Below, piece after piece: positions 4,443-13,834 of a stretch of 64,000 nucleotides of DNA. Source of the stretch: Amycolatopsis antarctica. Its GTDB lineage: Bacteria; Actinomycetota; Actinomycetes; Mycobacteriales; Pseudonocardiaceae. The notes under the pieces are model-generated. The model searched no databases, was not told the DNA's origin, and was given only the letters and a program-made list of their open reading frames with translations. The DNA is taken from assembly GCF_002262875.1 (NCBI RefSeq), contig NZ_NKYE01000004.1:248001-312000 (forward strand). Reading direction: 5' to 3'. Each line of letters begins with the position of its first letter. Position 1 is the stretch's first letter. The translations under genes were made by a program, and so were the position numbers.

Positions 4443-4463
4443 ATGATACCGGAGTGGTATCAT
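4443..4463 (+). promoter_or_regulatory. palindromic operator overlapping the -10 box of the first RHH/Doc operon
   Basis: ATGATACC and GGTATCAT are perfect 8-bp arms around GGAGT. The right arm contains TATCAT (4458-4463), a good actinobacterial -10 box, and the GTG at 4470 lies 7 bp downstream, so transcription would start on the start codon (leaderless). A repressor on this palindrome would cover the promoter. RHH antitoxins usually bind such palindromes and autoregulate. Confidence 0.65.
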
Positions 4464-4469
4464 TGTCTT

Positions 4470-4673
4470 GTGGCGATGACGTTGAGGCTGAACGACGAGC
4501 AGGAACGTGCTCTGGCCATGCTCGCCGAGGTCAATGGGGTGAGCAAGCACGAAGCGGTGGTGCGGGCGATCACCGAGGCCGCCGCTCGGTCCGTCCGTGA
4601 CGACCGGGTGCGGGCCCTGTCCCGGGACGGGCGCCCGAGGTACGCCGCATTGCTCGATCGTCTGGCGCAGTGA
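4470..4673 (+). CDS. ribbon-helix-helix antitoxin of Doc-type pair, copy 1
   Basis: The 67-residue protein begins with the short beta-strand pattern MTLRLN typical of RHH/CopG proteins, followed by two helices (ERALAMLAEVNG and KHEAVVRAITEAA) and a basic linker toward RYAALLDRLAQ, which would wrap the toxin. The GTG at 4470 is preferred to an ATG at 4443 because the latter lies inside the operator palindrome and upstream of the likely transcription start. The stop overlaps the toxin start (GTGA). Copy 2 (5124-5327) is about 85% identical over 65 residues. Confidence 0.82.
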   Translation: MAMTLRLNDEQERALAMLAEVNGVSKHEAVVRAITEAAARSVRDDRVRALSRDGRPRYAALLDRLAQ

Positions 4674-5086
4674 AGATCGAATATCTGACGCTGGACGACC
4701 TGCTCGCGCTCGCGGCTGATCTGGGTGTGTCCCGCGTCCGGGACCTGGGGCTACTCGACGCGGCGGCACATCGGCCGCAGTCTTCGCTGATGGGGCAGGA
4801 CGCTTACCCGAGCCTGGACGAGAAGGCAGCGGTTCTCCTGGAGTCGCTCGTCCGCAATTATCCGCTCGCGGATGGCAACAAGCGACTGGGCTGGATGGCC
4901 GTCTTCGTTTTCTACGGCCTCAACGGCGTCGACCTGGAGGCACCCGAGGGCGACGCGTACGACCTCGTGATCGCGACGGCGACCGGTGCGATTGCCTACG
5001 GCGAGGTCGCGCGAAGCCTGGCGAGGTGGACTTGCGCAGTCGTTGCACCACCGCGGAATCCGGTCAAGCTCCGCTTCAACGTCTGA
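4670..5086 (+). CDS. doc: Doc/Fic-family toxin with Tyr in place of the catalytic His
   Basis: The 138-residue protein matches the Doc toxin family in length and in the core NYPLADGNKRLGW (residues 63-75). The family motif is H-P-[LF]-x-[DN]-[GA]-N-K-R, and Doc phosphorylates EF-Tu using that His. Here codon 64 (4859-4861) is TAT, Tyr, one transition from CAT, His. In phage P1 Doc the equivalent change at His66 is the classical non-toxic variant. The remaining motif residues (Asp68, Asn70, Lys71, Arg72) are intact, so the fold and antitoxin binding are probably kept while catalysis is doubtful. Translation is coupled to the antitoxin by a 4-bp overlap. Confidence 0.85.
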   Translation: MKIEYLTLDDLLALAADLGVSRVRDLGLLDAAAHRPQSSLMGQDAYPSLDEKAAVLLESLVRNYPLADGNKRLGWMAVFVFYGLNGVDLEAPEGDAYDLVIATATGAIAYGEVARSLARWTCAVVAPPRNPVKLRFNV

Positions 5087-5123: not shown

Positions 5124-5327
5124 ATGGCGATGACCTTGAGGCTGAACGAGGAGCATGAGCGCGCCCTGGCGATGCTCGCTGAAGCCAACGGGGTGAGCAA
5201 GCACGAAGCGGTCGTGCGGACGATCACCGAGGCCGGGGCCAGGTCGGTTCGCGACGATCGGATTCGCGTTCTGTCGCAGGACGGGCGCAATCGGTACGCC
5301 TCGTTGCTTGATCGCCTGGCACAGTGA
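5124..5327 (+). CDS. ribbon-helix-helix antitoxin, copy 2 (orphan)
   Basis: The 67-residue protein is a close paralogue of the 4470-4673 antitoxin: in the 65 shared residues about ten differ, mostly conservatively, and the reading frame is clean. Its own toxin gene directly downstream is broken, so it is now an orphan. The upstream region has lost the perfect operator palindrome of copy 1 (only scattered matches around 5107-5122), so its regulation probably differs. Orphan antitoxins of this sort can neutralise related incoming toxins or cross-regulate the intact copy. ATG at 5124 is used; ATG at 5130 is equally possible. Confidence 0.75.
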   Translation: MAMTLRLNEEHERALAMLAEANGVSKHEAVVRTITEAGARSVRDDRIRVLSQDGRNRYASLLDRLAQ

Positions 5328-5743
5328 CGTTCGAGTACCTGACTTCTGGAGGACCTGCTTGCCGTTGCGGTCCACCCGAATGTCTCTCGGGTTCGGGATC
5401 TGGGGTTACTCTACGCGGCGGCGCATCGGCCGCAGTCCTCGCCGATGGGCAGGACGCCTGTCCGGGCCTGCACGAGAAGGCCGCGGTCCTGCCGGGATCG
5501 GTCGTTCGCAATTGCCCGCTCATCAACGGCGACGAGCGGCTGGGTTGGATGGCGGTCTTCGTTTTCCATGGTCTCAACGGCGTTGATCCGGAAGCGCCCG
5601 ACGATGACGCGTACGACCTCGTAATCGCGACCGCTACCGGTGCGGCCGCCTATGACGAGGTCGCCGCGAGTCTTTCGGAATGGACTCGGGCAGAGTCACC
5701 CCGCCACGGAAACCGCTCCAGTCTCGCTCACCGTGCCGAGTAG
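5324..5743 (+). pseudogene. decayed Doc-family toxin, copy 2
   Basis: Alignment with the intact doc DNA shows one extra base near 5341-5346 and one missing base near 5449-5454. Between them the doc-like peptide (for example DLLAV, VSRVRDLGLL, AAAHRPQSS) is read in another frame, while before and after it lies in this one. The catalytic segment reads NCPLINGDERLGW: the His position is Cys, Asp is Asn, Asn is Asp and Lys is Glu. An open frame of 139 codons survives but cannot make a functional Doc. A GTG overlaps the stop of the preceding antitoxin exactly as in copy 1, which shows this was a duplicated operon. Confidence 0.85.
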
Positions 5744-5835: not shown

Positions 5836-6564
5836 ATGCCTGATGCCATCTACGCGCAGCGTCGTCTTGCCGAGATCTACGATCCGCTGGACCCCGATCG
5901 CGGTGATCTGGACGCCTACGCGGCGATGGTGGAGGAGTTCGGCGCGCGCAGTGTGCTCGACATCGGTTGCGGGACAGGCACTTTCGCCTGCCTGCTGGCG
6001 TTGCGCGGGATCGGCGTCGTCGGCGTCGATCCCGCGGCGGCCTCACTGGAGGTGGCGCGCACCAAGCCCGGCGCGGACCGGGTGCGCTGGCTGCACGGGG
6101 ACGCGACGGCCCTGCCACCGCTGCGGGTCGACCTCGCCACCATGACCGCGAACGTCGCGCAGGTGTTCGTGACCGACGAGGAGTGGGACGCGACGCTGCG
6201 GGGGACGCATGCCGCCCTGCGGCCGGGCGGGCGACTGGTGTTCGAGGTCCGGGACCCGGCGAAGCGTGCCTGGCTCACCTGGAACCGCGAGCAGCGGCAC
6301 AACCGGGTGGACATCCCCGAGGTGGGCGTCGTGGAGAGCTGGGCGGACCTGACCGACGTCCGGGACGGCCTCGTCTCCTTCCGCCACACCTTCGTGTTCG
6401 AGGCCGACGGTTCCGTGCTGACCTCCGACTCGACCCTGCGGTTCCGGGAACGGGAGGAGGTCGCCGATTCGCTCACGGCGGCCGGCTTCACCGTCGACGA
6501 GGTCCGGGACGCGCCGGACCGGCCCGGCCGCGAGTTCGTCTTCCTCGCCCACCGCCCCGTCTGA
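5836..6564 (+). CDS. class I SAM-dependent methyltransferase
   Basis: The 242-residue protein has motif I VLDIGCGTGTFA (about residues 38-49), an acidic motif II residue (GVDP), and the post-motif segment GDATALP, the usual layout of small Rossmann-fold methyltransferases (methyltransferase_25/31 type). The substrate cannot be read from sequence. The ATG at 5836 gives a normal N-terminus; the longer open frame upstream is non-conserved-looking. A TACGTT nine bases before the ATG suggests a nearly leaderless transcript. It is 232 bp upstream of the MNIO cassette on the same strand, so a tailoring role there is possible but unproven. Confidence 0.85.
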   Translation: MPDAIYAQRRLAEIYDPLDPDRGDLDAYAAMVEEFGARSVLDIGCGTGTFACLLALRGIGVVGVDPAAASLEVARTKPGADRVRWLHGDATALPPLRVDLATMTANVAQVFVTDEEWDATLRGTHAALRPGGRLVFEVRDPAKRAWLTWNREQRHNRVDIPEVGVVESWADLTDVRDGLVSFRHTFVFEADGSVLTSDSTLRFREREEVADSLTAAGFTVDEVRDAPDRPGREFVFLAHRPV

Positions 6565-6796: not shown

Positions 6797-6949
6797 ATGA
6801 ACACTCTCGACGTCAACGAGCCCACCGCCATCGACCGCCTGGAGCAGGTGCAGGCCGTCGTTGCGGACCTGTACCAGACCCCCGGCTGTCTCGCCTGCGG
6901 CAAGCTCAGCTTCACGCTGGACGCCCTTGAGCCGGTGAACGGCAACTAG
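6797..6949 (+). CDS. 50-residue peptide with CxxC motif, candidate RiPP precursor of the MNIO cassette
   Basis: The ORF encodes 50 residues. The first half is polar and helix-prone (IDRLEQVQAVVADLY), like a RiPP leader, and it has no signal peptide. The second half starts TPGCLACGKLSF, carrying the only two cysteines (Cys31 and Cys34), and ends ALEPVNGN. The stop codon is 12 bp before the preferred MNIO start, and its TAG lies in the ribosome binding site of that gene. Members of the MNIO family modify Cys, Asp or Asn residues in short precursor peptides encoded next door. I did not recognise a named precursor family. No strong Shine-Dalgarno is seen before the ATG. Confidence 0.72.
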   Translation: MNTLDVNEPTAIDRLEQVQAVVADLYQTPGCLACGKLSFTLDALEPVNGN

Positions 6950-6961
6950 GAGATGCACGGC

Positions 6962-7882
6962 ATGCCCGCGCCGACCGGTTCGCTCTCGTCCACGGCGACT
7001 TCCGGGCCGTCGTGGCCGGAGCCGGCCGGGGTGGGCATGTCCTTCCTGCCGTCCCGGCCCGACCTGGTCACCGAGCTGCTGCCCTCGGCCGACTATGTGG
7101 AGATGGGTCCCGAGCTGTTCGCCAGGGCCACCGGCGACGAACGGATCGCCTTCGACACCGAGGCCGCGGAGGCGGCGCTGCGGCTGGCCGGTGACCTGCC
7201 CGTGGTCCTGCACGGCCTCGAACTGTCCATCGGATCGGCACACGGGTGGAACGAGGTCGCGCTGCACTGCCTCGACCGTTTCCTGGAACTGCGCGAGGTG
7301 CTCTGGCACAGCGAGCATCTCAACTTCCTGAACACCACGGCCGCCGACGGCTCGGTGATCGAGCTGGGGCTGCCGATGCCGCTGCCGTTCACCGCGGAGT
7401 GCGCCGAGCTCGTCGCTACGCGCGCCGACCTGGTGATGGATCGCTACGGGATGATGTTCCTGCTGGAGAATCCGGCGAACTATCTGCCGGACCTGCCGCG
7501 CGACCCGGGCTGGGACGAACCGGCGTTCCTCACCGCGATCACCGAGCGCAGCCGCGGCGGCCTGCTTCTCGACCTCTACAACCTGTGGACGAACTGCGTG
7601 AACCACCGGCTGGATCCGCAGGAACTGCTCGCGCGCATGCCCCTGGACCGGGTGGTGGAGATCCACGTGGCCGGGGGCGAGGAACGCGACGGCCTGCTGC
7701 TCGACTCGCACAGTGCCGCGGTGCCGGATCCGGTGTGGCGGATGCTGGAGACGGTGGTGCCGAAGGCTTCCCGGCTGGCCGGGGTGACGGTCGAAGTGCT
7801 CGACGTCTACGCGGGCAAGCTGGGCGCGGATGCCATCGGCGAGCAACTGGCGACGGCCCGCTCCATCTGGGACGCCCGGTGA
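6962..7882 (+). CDS. DUF692 multinuclear non-heme iron-dependent oxidase (MNIO)
   Basis: The 306-residue protein shows the conserved DUF692 blocks in order: LHGLELSIGS (His84), WHSEHLNF (His116, Glu118, His119), LLENPANYL (Glu169, Asn170), LLLDLYNLWTN (Asp204, Asn207), EIHVAGGE (His235) and DSHSAAVPDPVW (Asp248, His250). These supply the ligands of the two- or three-iron cluster in a TIM barrel. Characterised members (MbnB, TglH, ChrH) oxidise Cys or neighbouring residues of RiPP precursors. The ATG at 6962 is favoured over 6953 because AGGAG (6948-6952) is then 9 bp away rather than touching. In the last block family members usually have Asp-His where this one has Ser after His250. The stop overlaps the partner gene by 4 bp. 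Confidence 0.92.
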   Translation: MPAPTGSLSSTATSGPSWPEPAGVGMSFLPSRPDLVTELLPSADYVEMGPELFARATGDERIAFDTEAAEAALRLAGDLPVVLHGLELSIGSAHGWNEVALHCLDRFLELREVLWHSEHLNFLNTTAADGSVIELGLPMPLPFTAECAELVATRADLVMDRYGMMFLLENPANYLPDLPRDPGWDEPAFLTAITERSRGGLLLDLYNLWTNCVNHRLDPQELLARMPLDRVVEIHVAGGEERDGLLLDSHSAAVPDPVWRMLETVVPKASRLAGVTVEVLDVYAGKLGADAIGEQLATARSIWDAR

Positions 7883-8562
7883 CCGGCACCCCCGACCTGG
7901 CGACCTGGCAGCGGGACATCAGTGCCGCGCTGCTCGAAGGGGCACCGCGGGACGCGCCCGCGGACGGCACCCCGGCCGAACGTTCAGGCTGGGCGATCAC
8001 GACGGCGCTCTACCGCCAGTGGCGCGTCTTCCGGTTGCGGTCGGTCGCGCCGTTGACGCTCGCCGCCCTCCGCGATCAGGCCGATGTGGTGGTCGCCGCC
8101 TACCTGGCGGCGAATCCGGGATCCACCTCGTACGCGGCGACCGACGCCGAGGGCTTCCTGCGCTTCGCCGTGCGGACGATCCCGGATGACGTGCACCTGG
8201 CGGAGATCGCCGCGCTGGAGCGGGACTTCCTCACCGCGCGCCTGCCGGCCGAGGTGGAGGATCCGCCGCCCCCGGGGACGTTGCGCCGGGCGTGCCGGGC
8301 CGGGATCCGCGAGGCGCGGTTCGATCCGCATCGACTGCTGCTCTGGCTGGCAGGGCGCGGGGAGCAGCCCGAAGCGGAACCGGCCGGGCTGAAGATCCTG
8401 GTCGCCCCGGGGCTGCCCGGCTGGGTCCGGGTGGCCACGGCGGACGAGGTGGAACTGTGGGATTCGCTGGCCGCGGGCCGGGCTGCCGGTTCGCTTCCGG
8501 CCGGGCTGGGCGAGGCGCTCGGCGAACTGGTCCGGGCGGGTGCGGTGACCGCGTCCGGCTGA
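7879..8562 (+). CDS. probable MNIO partner protein (HvfC/DUF2063-like)
   Basis: The 227-residue protein starts with GTG overlapping the oxidase stop (GTGA), so the two are made together. Its N-terminal part (about 5-120) follows the pattern of DUF2063/HvfC-type partners: LATWQRDISAALL, then YRQWRVFRLRSVAPLTL, AYLAANPGS, GFLRFA and LAEIAALERDF. The C-terminal part (about 150-220) is a variable mixed region. In MbnBC and TglHI such partners hold the leader peptide and complete the active complex. The similarity is read by eye and is moderate; a profile search is needed to confirm the family. An 8-bp stem spanning its stop codon ends the operon. Confidence 0.65.
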   Translation: MTGTPDLATWQRDISAALLEGAPRDAPADGTPAERSGWAITTALYRQWRVFRLRSVAPLTLAALRDQADVVVAAYLAANPGSTSYAATDAEGFLRFAVRTIPDDVHLAEIAALERDFLTARLPAEVEDPPPPGTLRRACRAGIREARFDPHRLLLWLAGRGEQPEAEPAGLKILVAPGLPGWVRVATADEVELWDSLAAGRAAGSLPAGLGEALGELVRAGAVTASG

Positions 8563-8580
8563 GTCCGTACGGCTCAGCCG
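8556..8580. terminator. bidirectional stem across converging stop codons
   Basis: CGGCTGAG (8556-8563) and CTCAGCCG (8573-8580) form a perfect 8-bp stem with a 9-base loop. The stop codons of the MNIO partner gene and of the GNAT gene on the other strand both lie inside the arms. There is no U tract, which is common for actinobacterial terminators. Confidence 0.6.
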
Positions 8581-9870: not shown

Positions 9871-9980
9871 CGGTCTGCCTTTCGTCGTCGCGTTCCGCCC
9901 GCGCCGGGACGGCGGTGTGGGCGGATGTCTCGATCCGCCGTCACCAATGGTGGGCCCCGGAGAGGTAGGCTGCATGTTCG

Positions 9981-10068
9981 CCACGGGAGTCCGGTACGCC
10001 GGGCTGAGAGGCGGGCCTGGCCCGCGACCGTTCGCACCTGATCCGGATCATGCCGGCGCAGGGAGGGC
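9981..10068 (+). ncRNA. TPP riboswitch (THI element) controlling thiBPQ
   Basis: The element shows the standard THI-box cores: ACGGGAGTCCGG at its start, CGGGCTGAGAGG in the pyrimidine-sensing helix, then GCACCTGATCCGGATCATGCCGGCGCAGGGA for the pyrophosphate-sensing helix (quoted in parts: CCTGATCCGG and GCCGGCGCAGGGA). It ends about 39 bp before the thiB ATG. In Actinobacteria these switches mostly block translation when TPP is bound; no terminator hairpin with a U tract follows, which fits that. Confidence 0.95.
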
Positions 10069-10106
10069 ACATCGCCGTCCTTGTCCGCCGGGGCATAGGA
10101 GTGGCT

Positions 10107-11198
10107 ATGACTTCCCCCCGACGTGTTCGTCCCAGCGGCGGCGGTCCGGCGCGGCTGCGTACCGGGCTCGCACTGGGCCTGACCGCGATCGTGGCGAGTG
10201 GCTGCACGCTGTTCGCCGCGGAGGAACCGCAGGGTGGTGGCGGTGGCGCGGTGGTGAAGCTGGTGACGCACGAGTCGTTCTCGGTGCCGCAGGAGATCCT
10301 CGATGCCTTCGCCCAGCAGTCCGGCATCCGGATCGAGGTGCTGAAGGAGGGCGACGCGGGGGCGCTGACGAACAAGCTGGTGCTGACGAAGGCCAACCCG
10401 ATCGCCGACGTGGCCTACGGGGTCGATTCGACGTTCGCCTCCCGCGCGCTCGACGAGGGCGTGTTCGCGCCCTACACCAGCCCGGAGGGTGACCGGGGTG
10501 CGCAGCGCTTCGCGGTGGACGGTTCGCAGGGGCTGTCCGCGGTGGATCTCGGTGACGTGTGCGTGAACGTCGACTCGGCGTGGTTCGCGGAGAAGGGACT
10601 GCCCGAGCCGACCGGGTACGAGGACCTGCTCAAACCGGAGTACAAGGACCTGACGGTGGTGGAGAACCCGGCCACGTCCTCGCCTGGGCTGGCGTTCCTG
10701 CTCGGCACGGTGGCGGAGTACGGCGAGCAGGGCTGGGCGGACTACTGGACGAAACTGAAGGGCAACGGGGTGAAGGCGGTCGCGGGCTGGACGGAGGCGT
10801 ACTCGCAGGAGTTCTCCGGTTCGGCCGGGAAGGGGCCGCGGCCGATCGCCGTCTCCTACGCCTCCTCGCCCGCCGCCGAGGTCGGCGCGGACGGGGTCGC
10901 GCCGACGAAGGCGCTGCTGGACACCTGTTACCGGCAGGTCGAGTACGCCGGGGTGCTGGCGGGCGGCGCGCAGCCGGAGACGGCGGGCAAGGTCGTGGAC
11001 TTCCTGTTGTCCCAGCAGTTCCAGGCGATCCTCGCGGAGAACATGTACGTCTACCCGGCCCGTGAGGGAGTGGAGTTGCCCGCCACCTGGGCGACGGCCG
11101 CACCGCTGCCCGCGGAACCGGCCTCGCTGCCCGGTGAGACGGTGCAGGCCGGGCGGGAGCGGTGGGTCGAGCAGTGGCGCGGGCTGCTGGAGGGCTGA
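10107..11198 (+). CDS. thiB: thiamine ABC transporter substrate-binding lipoprotein
   Basis: The 363-residue protein has a lipoprotein signal peptide (VASGCT, Cys about residue 33) and a periplasmic-binding-protein fold of the ThiB type: LVTHESF, YGVDSTF and the TWPTAPLP-like C-terminal area, here ATWATAAPLP. It captures thiamine outside the membrane. AGGAG lies 5 bp before the ATG. A TPP riboswitch precedes it, confirming the substrate. The following permease overlaps its 3' end. Confidence 0.92.
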   Translation: MTSPRRVRPSGGGPARLRTGLALGLTAIVASGCTLFAAEEPQGGGGGAVVKLVTHESFSVPQEILDAFAQQSGIRIEVLKEGDAGALTNKLVLTKANPIADVAYGVDSTFASRALDEGVFAPYTSPEGDRGAQRFAVDGSQGLSAVDLGDVCVNVDSAWFAEKGLPEPTGYEDLLKPEYKDLTVVENPATSSPGLAFLLGTVAEYGEQGWADYWTKLKGNGVKAVAGWTEAYSQEFSGSAGKGPRPIAVSYASSPAAEVGADGVAPTKALLDTCYRQVEYAGVLAGGAQPETAGKVVDFLLSQQFQAILAENMYVYPAREGVELPATWATAAPLPAEPASLPGETVQAGRERWVEQWRGLLEG

Positions 11199-12805
11199 GG
11201 CCGGGAGCCGGGACGGCGCTGCTGGCGCTGGCGCCGATCGGTTTCCTGGTCGTCTTCTTCGCCTGGCCCGTGGTCGCGATCGTCGGCCTCGGGGTCGGCG
11301 ACGGGGGCGTGGCCGAGGCGCTGGGGCAGGCGCAGACGTGGCGGCTCGCCGGTTTCACCGTGGGGCAGGCGGCGGCGTCGACGGTGGTCGCGGTGCTGGC
11401 GGGGATGCCGGTGGCGTTCCTGCTGGCGCGCACGCGACTGCGCGGGGCCGGCGTGGTGCGGGTGCTGGTGCTGATCCCGTTCGTGCTGCCGACGGTCGTC
11501 GTCGGGCTGGCGTTCAAGGCGCTGTGGCCGGACGGCGGGGTGGGCGCGATCGTGCTGGCGAACTCGTTCTTCAACGTCGCGGTGGTGGCGCGCACGGTCG
11601 CCGGGCTGTGGTCGCATCTCGATCGTCGCGCCGAGGACGCGGCCAGGGCACTGGGAGCCTCGCGCTGGCGGGCGTTCCGCGGGGTCACCCTGCCCGCGCT
11701 GGTGCCCGCGATCGGTTCGGCGGCGGCGGTCGTCTTCCTGTTCTGCGCCACTAGTTTCGGTGTCGTGCTGATGCTGGGCGGGACGCGGTACCGGACGCTG
11801 GAGACCGAGATCTACCTGCGCACGGTCAACCTGCTCGACCTCTCCGGTGCGGCGGCGCTGTCGCTGGTGCAGCTCGCCGCCGTGGTCGCGGCGCTGGCGG
11901 TCGGTGCGCTGGCCCGCGGGCGCCGGGAGTCGGCGGCGCGGCTGCGGTCGGTGGCGGAGACGGCACGGCCACCGGAGCGCGGCGAGTGGTGGGTGGTCGG
12001 TGCGGCGCTGGCCGTGGTGGCCCTGTTGCTGGCGCCGATCGCCGCGCTGTTGCTGCGTTCGGTGTCCGGGCCGGACGGCTGGTCGCTGGCCGGGTACCGC
12101 GCGCTGGCGGGCCGGGGAGCTGACGGCACCTTGCAGGTCTCCGGCTGGGACGCGGCGCTCAACTCGCTGCGCACCGCCTCGGACGCCACGATGCTCGCGC
12201 TCGTGGTGGGCCTGCTGGCGGCCGTGGTGCTGGTGTCGCTGCGGCGAGCGCCCGGCCGGCTGCGCGGCGGGATGGCCGAGACGATGGACGCCGCGCTGAT
12301 GCTGCCGCTGGGCGTGTCGGCGGTGACGGTCGGCTTCGGCTACCTGGTGACGCTCGACGCGCTGCCCGGTGACCTGCGCACCTCGCCGCTGCTGGTGCCG
12401 TTCGCGCAGGCGCTGGTGATCATGCCGCTGATCGTGCGGATGGTGCTGCCCGTGCTGCGTTCGGTGGACGGCCGCTTGCGGCAGGCCGCCGCGACGCTCG
12501 GCGCGGGCCCGGTGCGGGTGTGGCGGGAGGTCGACGTGCCGCTGGTGTTCCGCTCGGTGCTGGCCGCGGCGGGCTTCGGCTACGTCGTGGCGCTCGGCGA
12601 GTTCGGGGCCACCAGTTTCCTGGCGCGGCCGGAGTCGCCGACGCTGCCGGTGGCGATCGCCTCGCTGATCGGCAGGCCGGGGGCGCTGAACGTGCAGATG
12701 GCGTACGCGGCGTGCGTTCTGCTGATGCTCGTCACGGCGGCCGTGGTGACGGTGATCGACCGGCTCGGGAACGCCCCGGGCCGTGGCGCGGTAGGGGAGT
12801 TCTGA
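11162..12805 (+). CDS. thiP: thiamine ABC transporter permease
   Basis: The 547-residue protein is a tandem permease with about twelve membrane helices. Each half has an EAA-type loop contacting the ATPase: AEDAARALGASRWRAF (about 155-170) and LRQAAATLGAGPVRVW (about 440-455). This duplicated form is typical of ThiP and of Fe3+ FbpB permeases; the riboswitch and ThiB decide for thiamine. The start is placed at GTG 11162, which overlaps thiB by 37 bp; GTG 11174 is an alternative. Confidence 0.92.
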   Translation: MGRAVARAAGGLRPGAGTALLALAPIGFLVVFFAWPVVAIVGLGVGDGGVAEALGQAQTWRLAGFTVGQAAASTVVAVLAGMPVAFLLARTRLRGAGVVRVLVLIPFVLPTVVVGLAFKALWPDGGVGAIVLANSFFNVAVVARTVAGLWSHLDRRAEDAARALGASRWRAFRGVTLPALVPAIGSAAAVVFLFCATSFGVVLMLGGTRYRTLETEIYLRTVNLLDLSGAAALSLVQLAAVVAALAVGALARGRRESAARLRSVAETARPPERGEWWVVGAALAVVALLLAPIAALLLRSVSGPDGWSLAGYRALAGRGADGTLQVSGWDAALNSLRTASDATMLALVVGLLAAVVLVSLRRAPGRLRGGMAETMDAALMLPLGVSAVTVGFGYLVTLDALPGDLRTSPLLVPFAQALVIMPLIVRMVLPVLRSVDGRLRQAAATLGAGPVRVWREVDVPLVFRSVLAAAGFGYVVALGEFGATSFLARPESPTLPVAIASLIGRPGALNVQMAYAACVLLMLVTAAVVTVIDRLGNAPGRGAVGEF

Positions 12806-12808
12806 CCC

Positions 12809-13834
12809 ATGGCACTGTCCGTGGACGGCCTGACGGTCCGCTTCGGCGGGCTCACCGCGGTCGCCGGAGCGCACCTGGACATCGCCGACGGCGAGGTGCT
12901 GGCACTGCTCGGCCCATCCGGTTCCGGCAAGTCGACGCTGCTACGGGCGATCACCGGCCTGGAGCAGATGGCCGCGGGCACCGTCCGCTGGGACGGCGCC
13001 GACCTCGCGGCGGTACCGGTGCACCAGCGTGGGTTCGGCCTCGTGTTCCAGGACGGGCAGCTCTTCCCGCACCGGGACGTGGCCGGCAACGTCGCGTTCG
13101 GCCTGCGGATGCACGGCGTCGAGCCACGCCGGCGGGCGGAGCGGGTCGCCGAGCTGCTGGAACTGGTGGGCCTGCGTGGATACGAGCGCAGGCGGGTCAC
13201 GCAGCTTTCCGGCGGCGAGGCGCAGCGGGTGGCACTGGCCCGCGCGCTGGCGCCGGAACCTCGGTTACTGCTGCTCGACGAACCGCTGTCCGGCCTGGAC
13301 GCGGGCCTGCGCGAACAGCTCGCCTTCGACCTCACCGAACTGCTGCGCCGCACCAAGATCACCACCCTGCTGGTGACCCACGACCAGGAGGAGGCGTTCA
13401 CGCTGGCCGACCGGGTGGCCGTGCTCGACGGCGGCGAGATCCGGCAGGTGGGCGATGTGGACGACGTGTGGCGCTGCCCGGCGACCGAGCCCGTCGCCCG
13501 CTTCCTCGGGGTGACGACGACGCTGGACGCGACCGTGTTCGACGGTGTGCTGCACAGTCCGCTGGGCACCGTCGGCTGGCCGGGGCGCGAGGACGGGACC
13601 GTCCGGATCGGCCTGCGCCCCAACGGGGTGCGGGCGTTGCCGGGCGGCGGCGACGGGCTCCCGGCCGAGGTGCTCGGCCGGGCGCACCGCCGCGACCACA
13701 CCCGGCTGCTCGTCCGCCCCACCGACTGGGAGTCCACAGTGGACGCCGTCGCCGCGTCGAGTGACGATGTGCGCCCCGGCGACCGGGTGCGCCTGCTGCT
13801 CGTAGCGGACGGGATGGCCGTGCTGGGCGGCTGA
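12809..13834 (+). CDS. thiQ: thiamine ABC transporter ATPase
   Basis: The 341-residue ATPase has Walker A GPSGSGKST (about 33-41), the Q-loop FQDGQLFPH, signature LSGGEAQRVALARAL (about 133), Walker B LLLLDEPLSG and the H-loop VTHDQEEA. A C-terminal extension (about 240-341) is a TOBE-like regulatory domain as in the FbpC/PotA group; E. coli ThiQ is shorter. Only 3 bp separate it from thiP. Confidence 0.9.
   Translation: MALSVDGLTVRFGGLTAVAGAHLDIADGEVLALLGPSGSGKSTLLRAITGLEQMAAGTVRWDGADLAAVPVHQRGFGLVFQDGQLFPHRDVAGNVAFGLRMHGVEPRRRAERVAELLELVGLRGYERRRVTQLSGGEAQRVALARALAPEPRLLLLDEPLSGLDAGLREQLAFDLTELLRRTKITTLLVTHDQEEAFTLADRVAVLDGGEIRQVGDVDDVWRCPATEPVARFLGVTTTLDATVFDGVLHSPLGTVGWPGREDGTVRIGLRPNGVRALPGGGDGLPAEVLGRAHRRDHTRLLVRPTDWESTVDAVAASSDDVRPGDRVRLLLVADGMAVLGG

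What the first reader, a model, noticed from the sequence alone, without database searches (positions are those of the whole stretch)
6797..8562. Three-gene MNIO cassette, likely an undescribed RiPP pathway
A 50-residue Cys-containing peptide, a DUF692 iron oxidase and a partner protein sit head to tail with coupled translation and a shared terminator. Known MNIO pathways (methanobactin, 3-thiaglutamate, chryseobasin-type, bufferins) have this logic, but neither the precursor nor the partner matches those by eye. A methyltransferase stands just upstream.
Basis: partly seen in the sequence, partly recalled or inferred. Interest (0 to 1): 0.85.

Follow-up and report, generated by a model that had tools for sequence, protein, structure and literature searches.

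The report
Minimal three-gene peptide-modifying iron-enzyme cassette
A bacterium carries a compact set of three genes - a tiny two-cysteine peptide, an iron enzyme of a family that rewrites cysteines, and a helper protein - found as the same trio in two other bacteria and probably making a chemically altered peptide not described before.

The parts
6797..6949 (+). Putative precursor peptide, 50 aa, MNTLDVNEPTAIDRLEQVQAVVADLYQTPGCLACGKLSFTLDALEPVNGN; motif GCxxCG[KR]LS shared with the two close relatives; no hydrophobic signal peptide by eye
   Evidence: coding composition; no significant Pfam or NCBIfam match
6962..7882 (+). MNIO (PF05114) oxidative enzyme, 306 aa from ATG 6962 (ATG 6953 also possible)
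   Evidence: Pfam 1.1e-48; invariant polar residues; PDB relatives 3bww, 8hci (TglH) and MbnB
7879..8562 (+). MNIO partner protein, 227 aa, GTG start in GTGA overlap; DUF2063-like helical N-terminal half, low-confidence C-terminal half
   Evidence: no significant family match; profile match to MNIO-fused domain; fold match to TglI and NGO1945
6948..6952 (+). AGGAG ribosome-binding-like site overlapping the end of the peptide gene, 9 nt before ATG 6962
   Evidence: sequence
8556..8580 (.). 10-bp hairpin between the cassette and the convergent GNAT gene, overlapping the ends of both; likely a bidirectional terminator without T-run

Best explanation
This is a minimal A-B-C RiPP-type cassette. A is a cytosolic precursor peptide, B an MNIO and C its partner. 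C most likely binds A and presents it to B. B, with its iron cluster and O2, oxidises the CxxCG cysteines, most likely a four-electron change (about -4 Da) that turns one or both Cys into a heterocycle or joins them in a ring. I saw no protease, transporter or signal peptide in the cassette, so the product either stays as an intracellular modified mini-protein (metal or redox role) or is processed by host functions. Shown by sequence: the three genes, their conservation as a unit in three loci, the enzyme family with its conserved polar residues, and the likeness of C to MNIO partners. Inferred: that A is the substrate, that the Cys are the site, the mass change, and the biological role.
Confidence: 0.8

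Rival explanations
1. The chemistry is chryseobasin-like: the two Cys of CxxCG are joined in a macrocycle with a backbone heterocycle (ChrH/DybH reaction).
For: CxxCG in 3 of 3 precursors; DybH gives -4 Da on CPACGMG and still acted on CPPCGMG and CPAACGMG (PMC12636315 sections 6 and 10).
Against: ChrH model score 51 against a cut-off of 600. The published motif CPxCGxG is C-terminal and recognised as such; here it is internal, lacks Pro after the first Cys in all three, and is followed by 15 residues or more. The window MNIO is 306 aa against a ChrH model of 363. DybH was active without a partner and ChrH uses the membrane protein ChrI, unlike this cassette.
Confidence: 0.3
2. The chemistry is captophorin/bufferin-like: a 5-thiooxazole (or oxazolone-thioamide) forms at the Cys-Gly, giving a copper-binding peptide.
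For: Cys-Gly follows the pattern of EGKCG substrates (PMC12668002 passages); the best-scoring NCBIfam models are BufB (135 bits) and HvfB (134 bits), although below cut-off.
Against: No Sec signal peptide by eye, no DoxX or sigma factor in the cassette, no Lys before Cys, partner not DUF2063 by Pfam; cut-offs 310 and 360 not reached.
Confidence: 0.3
3. The small protein is not a substrate but a structural or metal-binding (CxxC) subunit or regulator of the MNIO.
For: The peptide is short, by eye could form a strand-helix-strand mini-fold, and has no obvious cleaved core; CxxC is a common metal site (recalled). No model of the peptide was made.
Against: The gene order A-B-C is that of known MNIO cassettes, whose precursor genes precede the MNIO (PMC12452194); sister loci with C-terminal CxxC peptides (L058, L059) look like ordinary precursors.
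Confidence: 0.12
4. The upstream methyltransferase (5836-6564) is a fourth tailoring enzyme of the pathway.
For: Same strand, just upstream; weak likeness to the daptide methyltransferase model (49.9 bits, cut-off 175).
Against: 232 bp gap; tblastn of it found nothing better than E 4 in L003 or L037; a very common enzyme fold.
Confidence: 0.08

Closest known systems
MNIO cassettes with PME-type 2 partners (pearlin TglHI, aminopyruvatide, biphenomycin-like; Antoine et al. 2025, PMC12452194)
   Same: Signal-peptide-less precursor, MNIO and a partner without a Pfam DUF2063 match but with DUF2063-like fold; best fold match is the partner chain of the TglHI structure.
   Different: Precursor sequence and motif differ; enzyme far below the ApyH cut-off (101 against 400 bits); no further conserved enzymes in the cassette.
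adjamnio-7 putative precursors (MNIO cluster 7, PMC12452194)
   Same: No signal peptide and a CxxC motif, next to an MNIO.
   Different: Sequences are in a supplementary figure that could not be read; the example named is from Novilysobacter. Relation unknown.
Chryseobasin / DybH group (ChrH-like MNIOs)
   Same: Two Cys in CxxCG spacing.
   Different: Motif CPxCGxG at the C-terminus in that group; internal GCxxCG[KR]LS here; DybH acts without a partner, ChrH with a membrane protein; model score 51 of 600.
Bufferins / captophorins
   Same: A-B-C gene order, MNIO with partner, Cys-Gly.
   Different: Bufferin precursors have Sec signal peptides and DUF2063 partners, often with DoxX and sigma factors.
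Sister group found here: small LGCxxC[CT]SG-x-DI protein followed by an MNIO-partner fusion (L006, L048, L049/L051)
   Same: Small protein with (by eye) a helix then GCxxC directly before the MNIO; partner domain matching by profile; MNIO clade.
   Different: Partner fused to the enzyme; motif after CxxC differs; precursor homology only weakly supported.

Membership tests
MNIO (DUF692) superfamily | PF05114 domain above gathering score with conserved His/Asp/Glu/Asn positions | tested here: met
   166 bits against 25; 10 polar positions invariant in 29 of 29 rows, window included
RiPP cassette | Conserved small precursor gene beside the modifying enzyme | tested here: met
   3 of 3 loci, GCxxCGxLS
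RiPP cassette | The peptide is post-translationally modified | not testable with these tools
   needs co-expression and mass spectrometry
MNIO partner, PME-type 2 | Follows the MNIO, no DUF2063 Pfam match, structure related to NGO1945 or TglI | tested here: met
MNIO partner, PME-type 2 | RRE domain | tested here: inconclusive
   C-terminal half of the model has pLDDT mostly below 60
Bufferin / BufB | BufB equivalog score of 310 or more | tested here: not met
   135 bits
Bufferin / BufB | Sec signal peptide on the precursor | tested here: not met
   by eye only, no hydrophobic stretch in the N-terminus; no signal-peptide program was on hand
Chryseobasin / ChrH | ChrH equivalog score of 600 or more | tested here: not met
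   51 bits
Chryseobasin / ChrH | C-terminal CPxCGxG in the precursor | tested here: not met
   internal CxxCG without Pro after the first Cys in 3 of 3
Methanobactin | MbnB equivalog score of 325 or more and MbnC partner | tested here: not met
   MbnB 14.4 bits, partner no MbnC match
Aminopyruvatide / ApyH | ApyH equivalog score of 400 or more | tested here: not met
   101 bits
TIGR04222-associated MNIO | Membrane protein with Gly/Cys-rich tail before the MNIO | tested here: not met
   window has the 50-aa peptide instead; 25 of 31 comparison loci show such a tail by eye (not scanned with the TIGR04222 model)
adjamnio-7 | Sequence family of the published supplementary alignment | not testable with these tools

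The most novel reading that the evidence does not exclude
The cassette modifies an internal CxxCG loop of a folded strand-helix-strand mini-protein that is never cleaved or exported. It would be an MNIO-installed cofactor-like group (a metal or redox site) in a stand-alone cytosolic protein rather than a secreted natural product. The internal motif, the likely helix before it and strand after it (by eye), and the lack of protease or transporter fit this, and it may reach across the sister groups with LGCxxC proteins.
Probability: 0.2. Interest if true: 0.75.

Novelty: new variant of a known kind. Interest (0 to 1): 0.52.

Why it matters
MNIOs do some of the strangest peptide chemistry known, and most subfamilies have no assigned substrate. 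This cassette gives a complete, tiny, testable set (peptide, enzyme, partner) with a defined two-Cys motif at an internal position, outside the named MNIO families tested. Co-expressing three small genes would show whether CxxCG can be modified away from a C-terminus, and whether a cytosolic mini-protein can carry an MNIO-made group. The sister MNIO-partner fusions also support the partner role of DUF2063-like proteins that sequence searches miss.

Tried and rejected
Methyltransferase as a pathway gene: tblastn of it against nine fetched loci gave nothing better than E 4 in L003 or L037; one generic hit (E 3.5e-6) lies in L045. Set aside.

Precursor in Pfam and NCBIfam: no significant match (the best were E 0.04 to 0.25 to unrelated names). 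Plasmid searches with the L003 precursor and with P0004: none. Viral contigs with the MNIO profile: 42 pattern matches, none a relative. Plasmid search with the MNIO gave 300 records, all under 60% identity.

Partner by sequence against PDB: nothing of note (best E 0.54); against bufferin partners and against the L058/L059 partners: no convincing profile match. Fold comparison, not sequence, linked it to known partners. A Foldseek-only search could not be started.

Precursor homology between window type and LGCxxC type: weak; kept as a possibility, supported only by gene position and the enzyme tree. In the alignments A7 and A8 the L049 row is a 73-aa segment of a longer ORF that I cut out, and the L048 start is my choice of ATG. 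Two further weak hits of the window-type precursor profile (E 0.005 with two stops inside; E 0.008 inside a 481-aa frame) I judged chance without checking their neighbours.

One search translated the methyltransferase in a wrong frame and was not used; searches used the right one. In one search one of three fused rows (L051) was read in a wrong frame and was nearly empty, so that comparison rests on two rows; one search repeated it with three.

The terminator scan found none; the hairpin was found by folding.

Full report
What is there. A 50-aa ORF (6797-6949) with GCLACGKLSFTLDA is followed by an MNIO (start most likely ATG 6962, AGGAG at 6948-6952; stop 7880-7882) and a 227-aa protein starting at GTG 7879 at the MNIO stop (GTGA). 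The small ORF has the codon-position GC of a gene (0.68/0.38/0.92). The cassette meets a convergent GNAT gene at a 10-bp hairpin, fold -30.4 kcal/mol with z -3.4, but no T-run.

The enzyme. Pfam gives MbnB_TglH_ChrH, E 1.1e-48. NCBIfam equivalogs are all below cut-off: BufB 135 of 310 bits, HvfB 134 of 360, ApyH 101 of 400, ChrH 51 of 600, MbnB 14 of 325. PDB relatives are 3bww, TglH (8hci) and, with the three-row profile, MbnB. Ten polar positions (H83, S116, H118, E168, D203, N206, N213, H234, D247, H249 in P0002 numbering) are invariant in 29 of 29 aligned MNIOs, the window included. That they include the iron ligands is recalled, not tested.

Relatives. A genome-contig scan, which used exact peptide stretches of the window enzyme and so finds close relatives only, returned two loci: L003, a Frankiales MAG with a 63-64% MNIO, and a distant one, L004. 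A two-row profile search of 394 class genomes gave 2 hits at E 1e-45, own and G168. Of 396 phylum genomes only own passed E 1e-50; G168 was not reported there and was probably not drawn. Of 3 genomes in the order of G168 only G168 passed. Of 145 family genomes, 3 passed E 1e-36: own, G1174 and G1179, the latter two at 165 and 181 bits against 544-585 for the trio. A plain protein search of 150 relatives found some MNIO in 99, own at 100% and the listed others at 30-40% identity. So the close family found is three loci. In 3 of 3 the order is peptide, MNIO, partner, with a readable 4-bp MNIO-partner overlap. The peptides are 50, 84 and 84 aa and share GCxxCG[KR]LS. No other neighbour recurs that I could see by eye. 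A precursor-profile search in 296 class genomes gave strong hits only in own and G168, plus two weak ones judged chance.

The other MNIO contexts. Of 31 comparison MNIO loci (29 of the best, plus L001 and L004), 25 have, by eye, an upstream protein ending in a Gly/Cys-rich tail, which I take for the published TIGR04222 association; I did not scan them with that model. The genome's own second MNIO (L001) is of this type. The six others are L004, L006, L011, L020, L027 and L028. L058 and L059 (G1179, G1174) carry small ORFs ending in CGGCG and CSGCR before the MNIO. L006, L048 and L049/L051 carry small proteins (in L049 a part of a longer ORF) with LGCxxC[CT]SG-x-DI before an MNIO fused to a partner-like domain. 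P0004, the L006 small protein, hit 2 of 346 phylum genomes; the six-row precursor profile hit 1 of 66 and 1 of 199 in their classes, the seeds themselves.

Trees. In 40 rows the window trio and the fused trio form a clade with support 99/97. With 29 rows, L058 and L059 included, the same clade has 88/91 and the bootstrap had not settled; L058 and L059 do not join it. I take the relation as moderately supported. Precursor profiles of the two groups match only weakly (14%, E 0.002).

How it most likely works. By analogy with studied MNIOs, the partner binds the peptide and the MNIO oxidises cysteines with iron and O2. The only Cys conserved in the three precursors are the two of GCxxCG. ChrH and DybH act on CPACGMG, with +10 and -4 Da outcomes (PMC10214503 section 7; PMC12636315 sections 5, 6 and 10). 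Captophorin enzymes make 5-thiooxazoles at Lys-Cys with loss of four H per repeat (PMC12668002, passages only). Such four-electron chemistry makes about -4 Da my prediction; which product is open. Nothing here shows that the peptide is modified.

Known or new. PMC12452194 (abstract, sections 13, 17, 18, 19 and passages) maps the MNIO landscape and names adjamnio-7 precursors with CxxC and no signal peptide. Their sequences are in a supplement I could not read, so a relation is possible. In searches I saw no title or abstract start that describes GCxxCG[KR]LS precursors; I read parts of five papers. PMC13174530 (abstract, sections 3 and 5) shows a Streptomyces MNIO cassette with a different motif. 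I file this as a new variant of a known kind: same logic, new precursor and enzyme subgroup.

Limits.

Noticed in passing
window 4443-5086 and 5124-5743: Tandem duplicate of a small gene (weakly ribbon-helix-helix-like, below Pfam cut-offs) plus a Fic/Doc-like gene; the two Fic-like proteins are 75% identical over 80 aa, and the second copy has a changed DGNKR motif (NGDER) and lower third-position GC, 0.67 against 0.80.
   Followed up: partly
window 9973-10081: TPP riboswitch (64.3 bits) before genes at 10050-13834 that look by eye like a substrate-binding protein and ABC transporter for thiamine.
   Followed up: partly
G041 C1, locus L020 and L052: Another small ORF with CLACRAC before an MNIO in a same-genus genome, on a long branch of the tree; a possible further precursor type.
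   Followed up: partly
L058 (G1179) and L059 (G1174): MNIO cassettes with short peptides ending in CGGCG or CSGCR and partner-like proteins without Pfam match; possibly C-terminal CxxC precursors.
   Followed up: partly
L049 / L051 (G584): The upstream protein holds two CxxC-type units joined by an NPQPLPP linker (HPACATG and GCAACCSG), directly before an MNIO-partner fusion.
   Followed up: no
L037 2304-3647 (+): A long protein with two Cys-rich segments (RCHLVCRWLCSKHC...) divergent from the G168 cassette.
   Followed up: no
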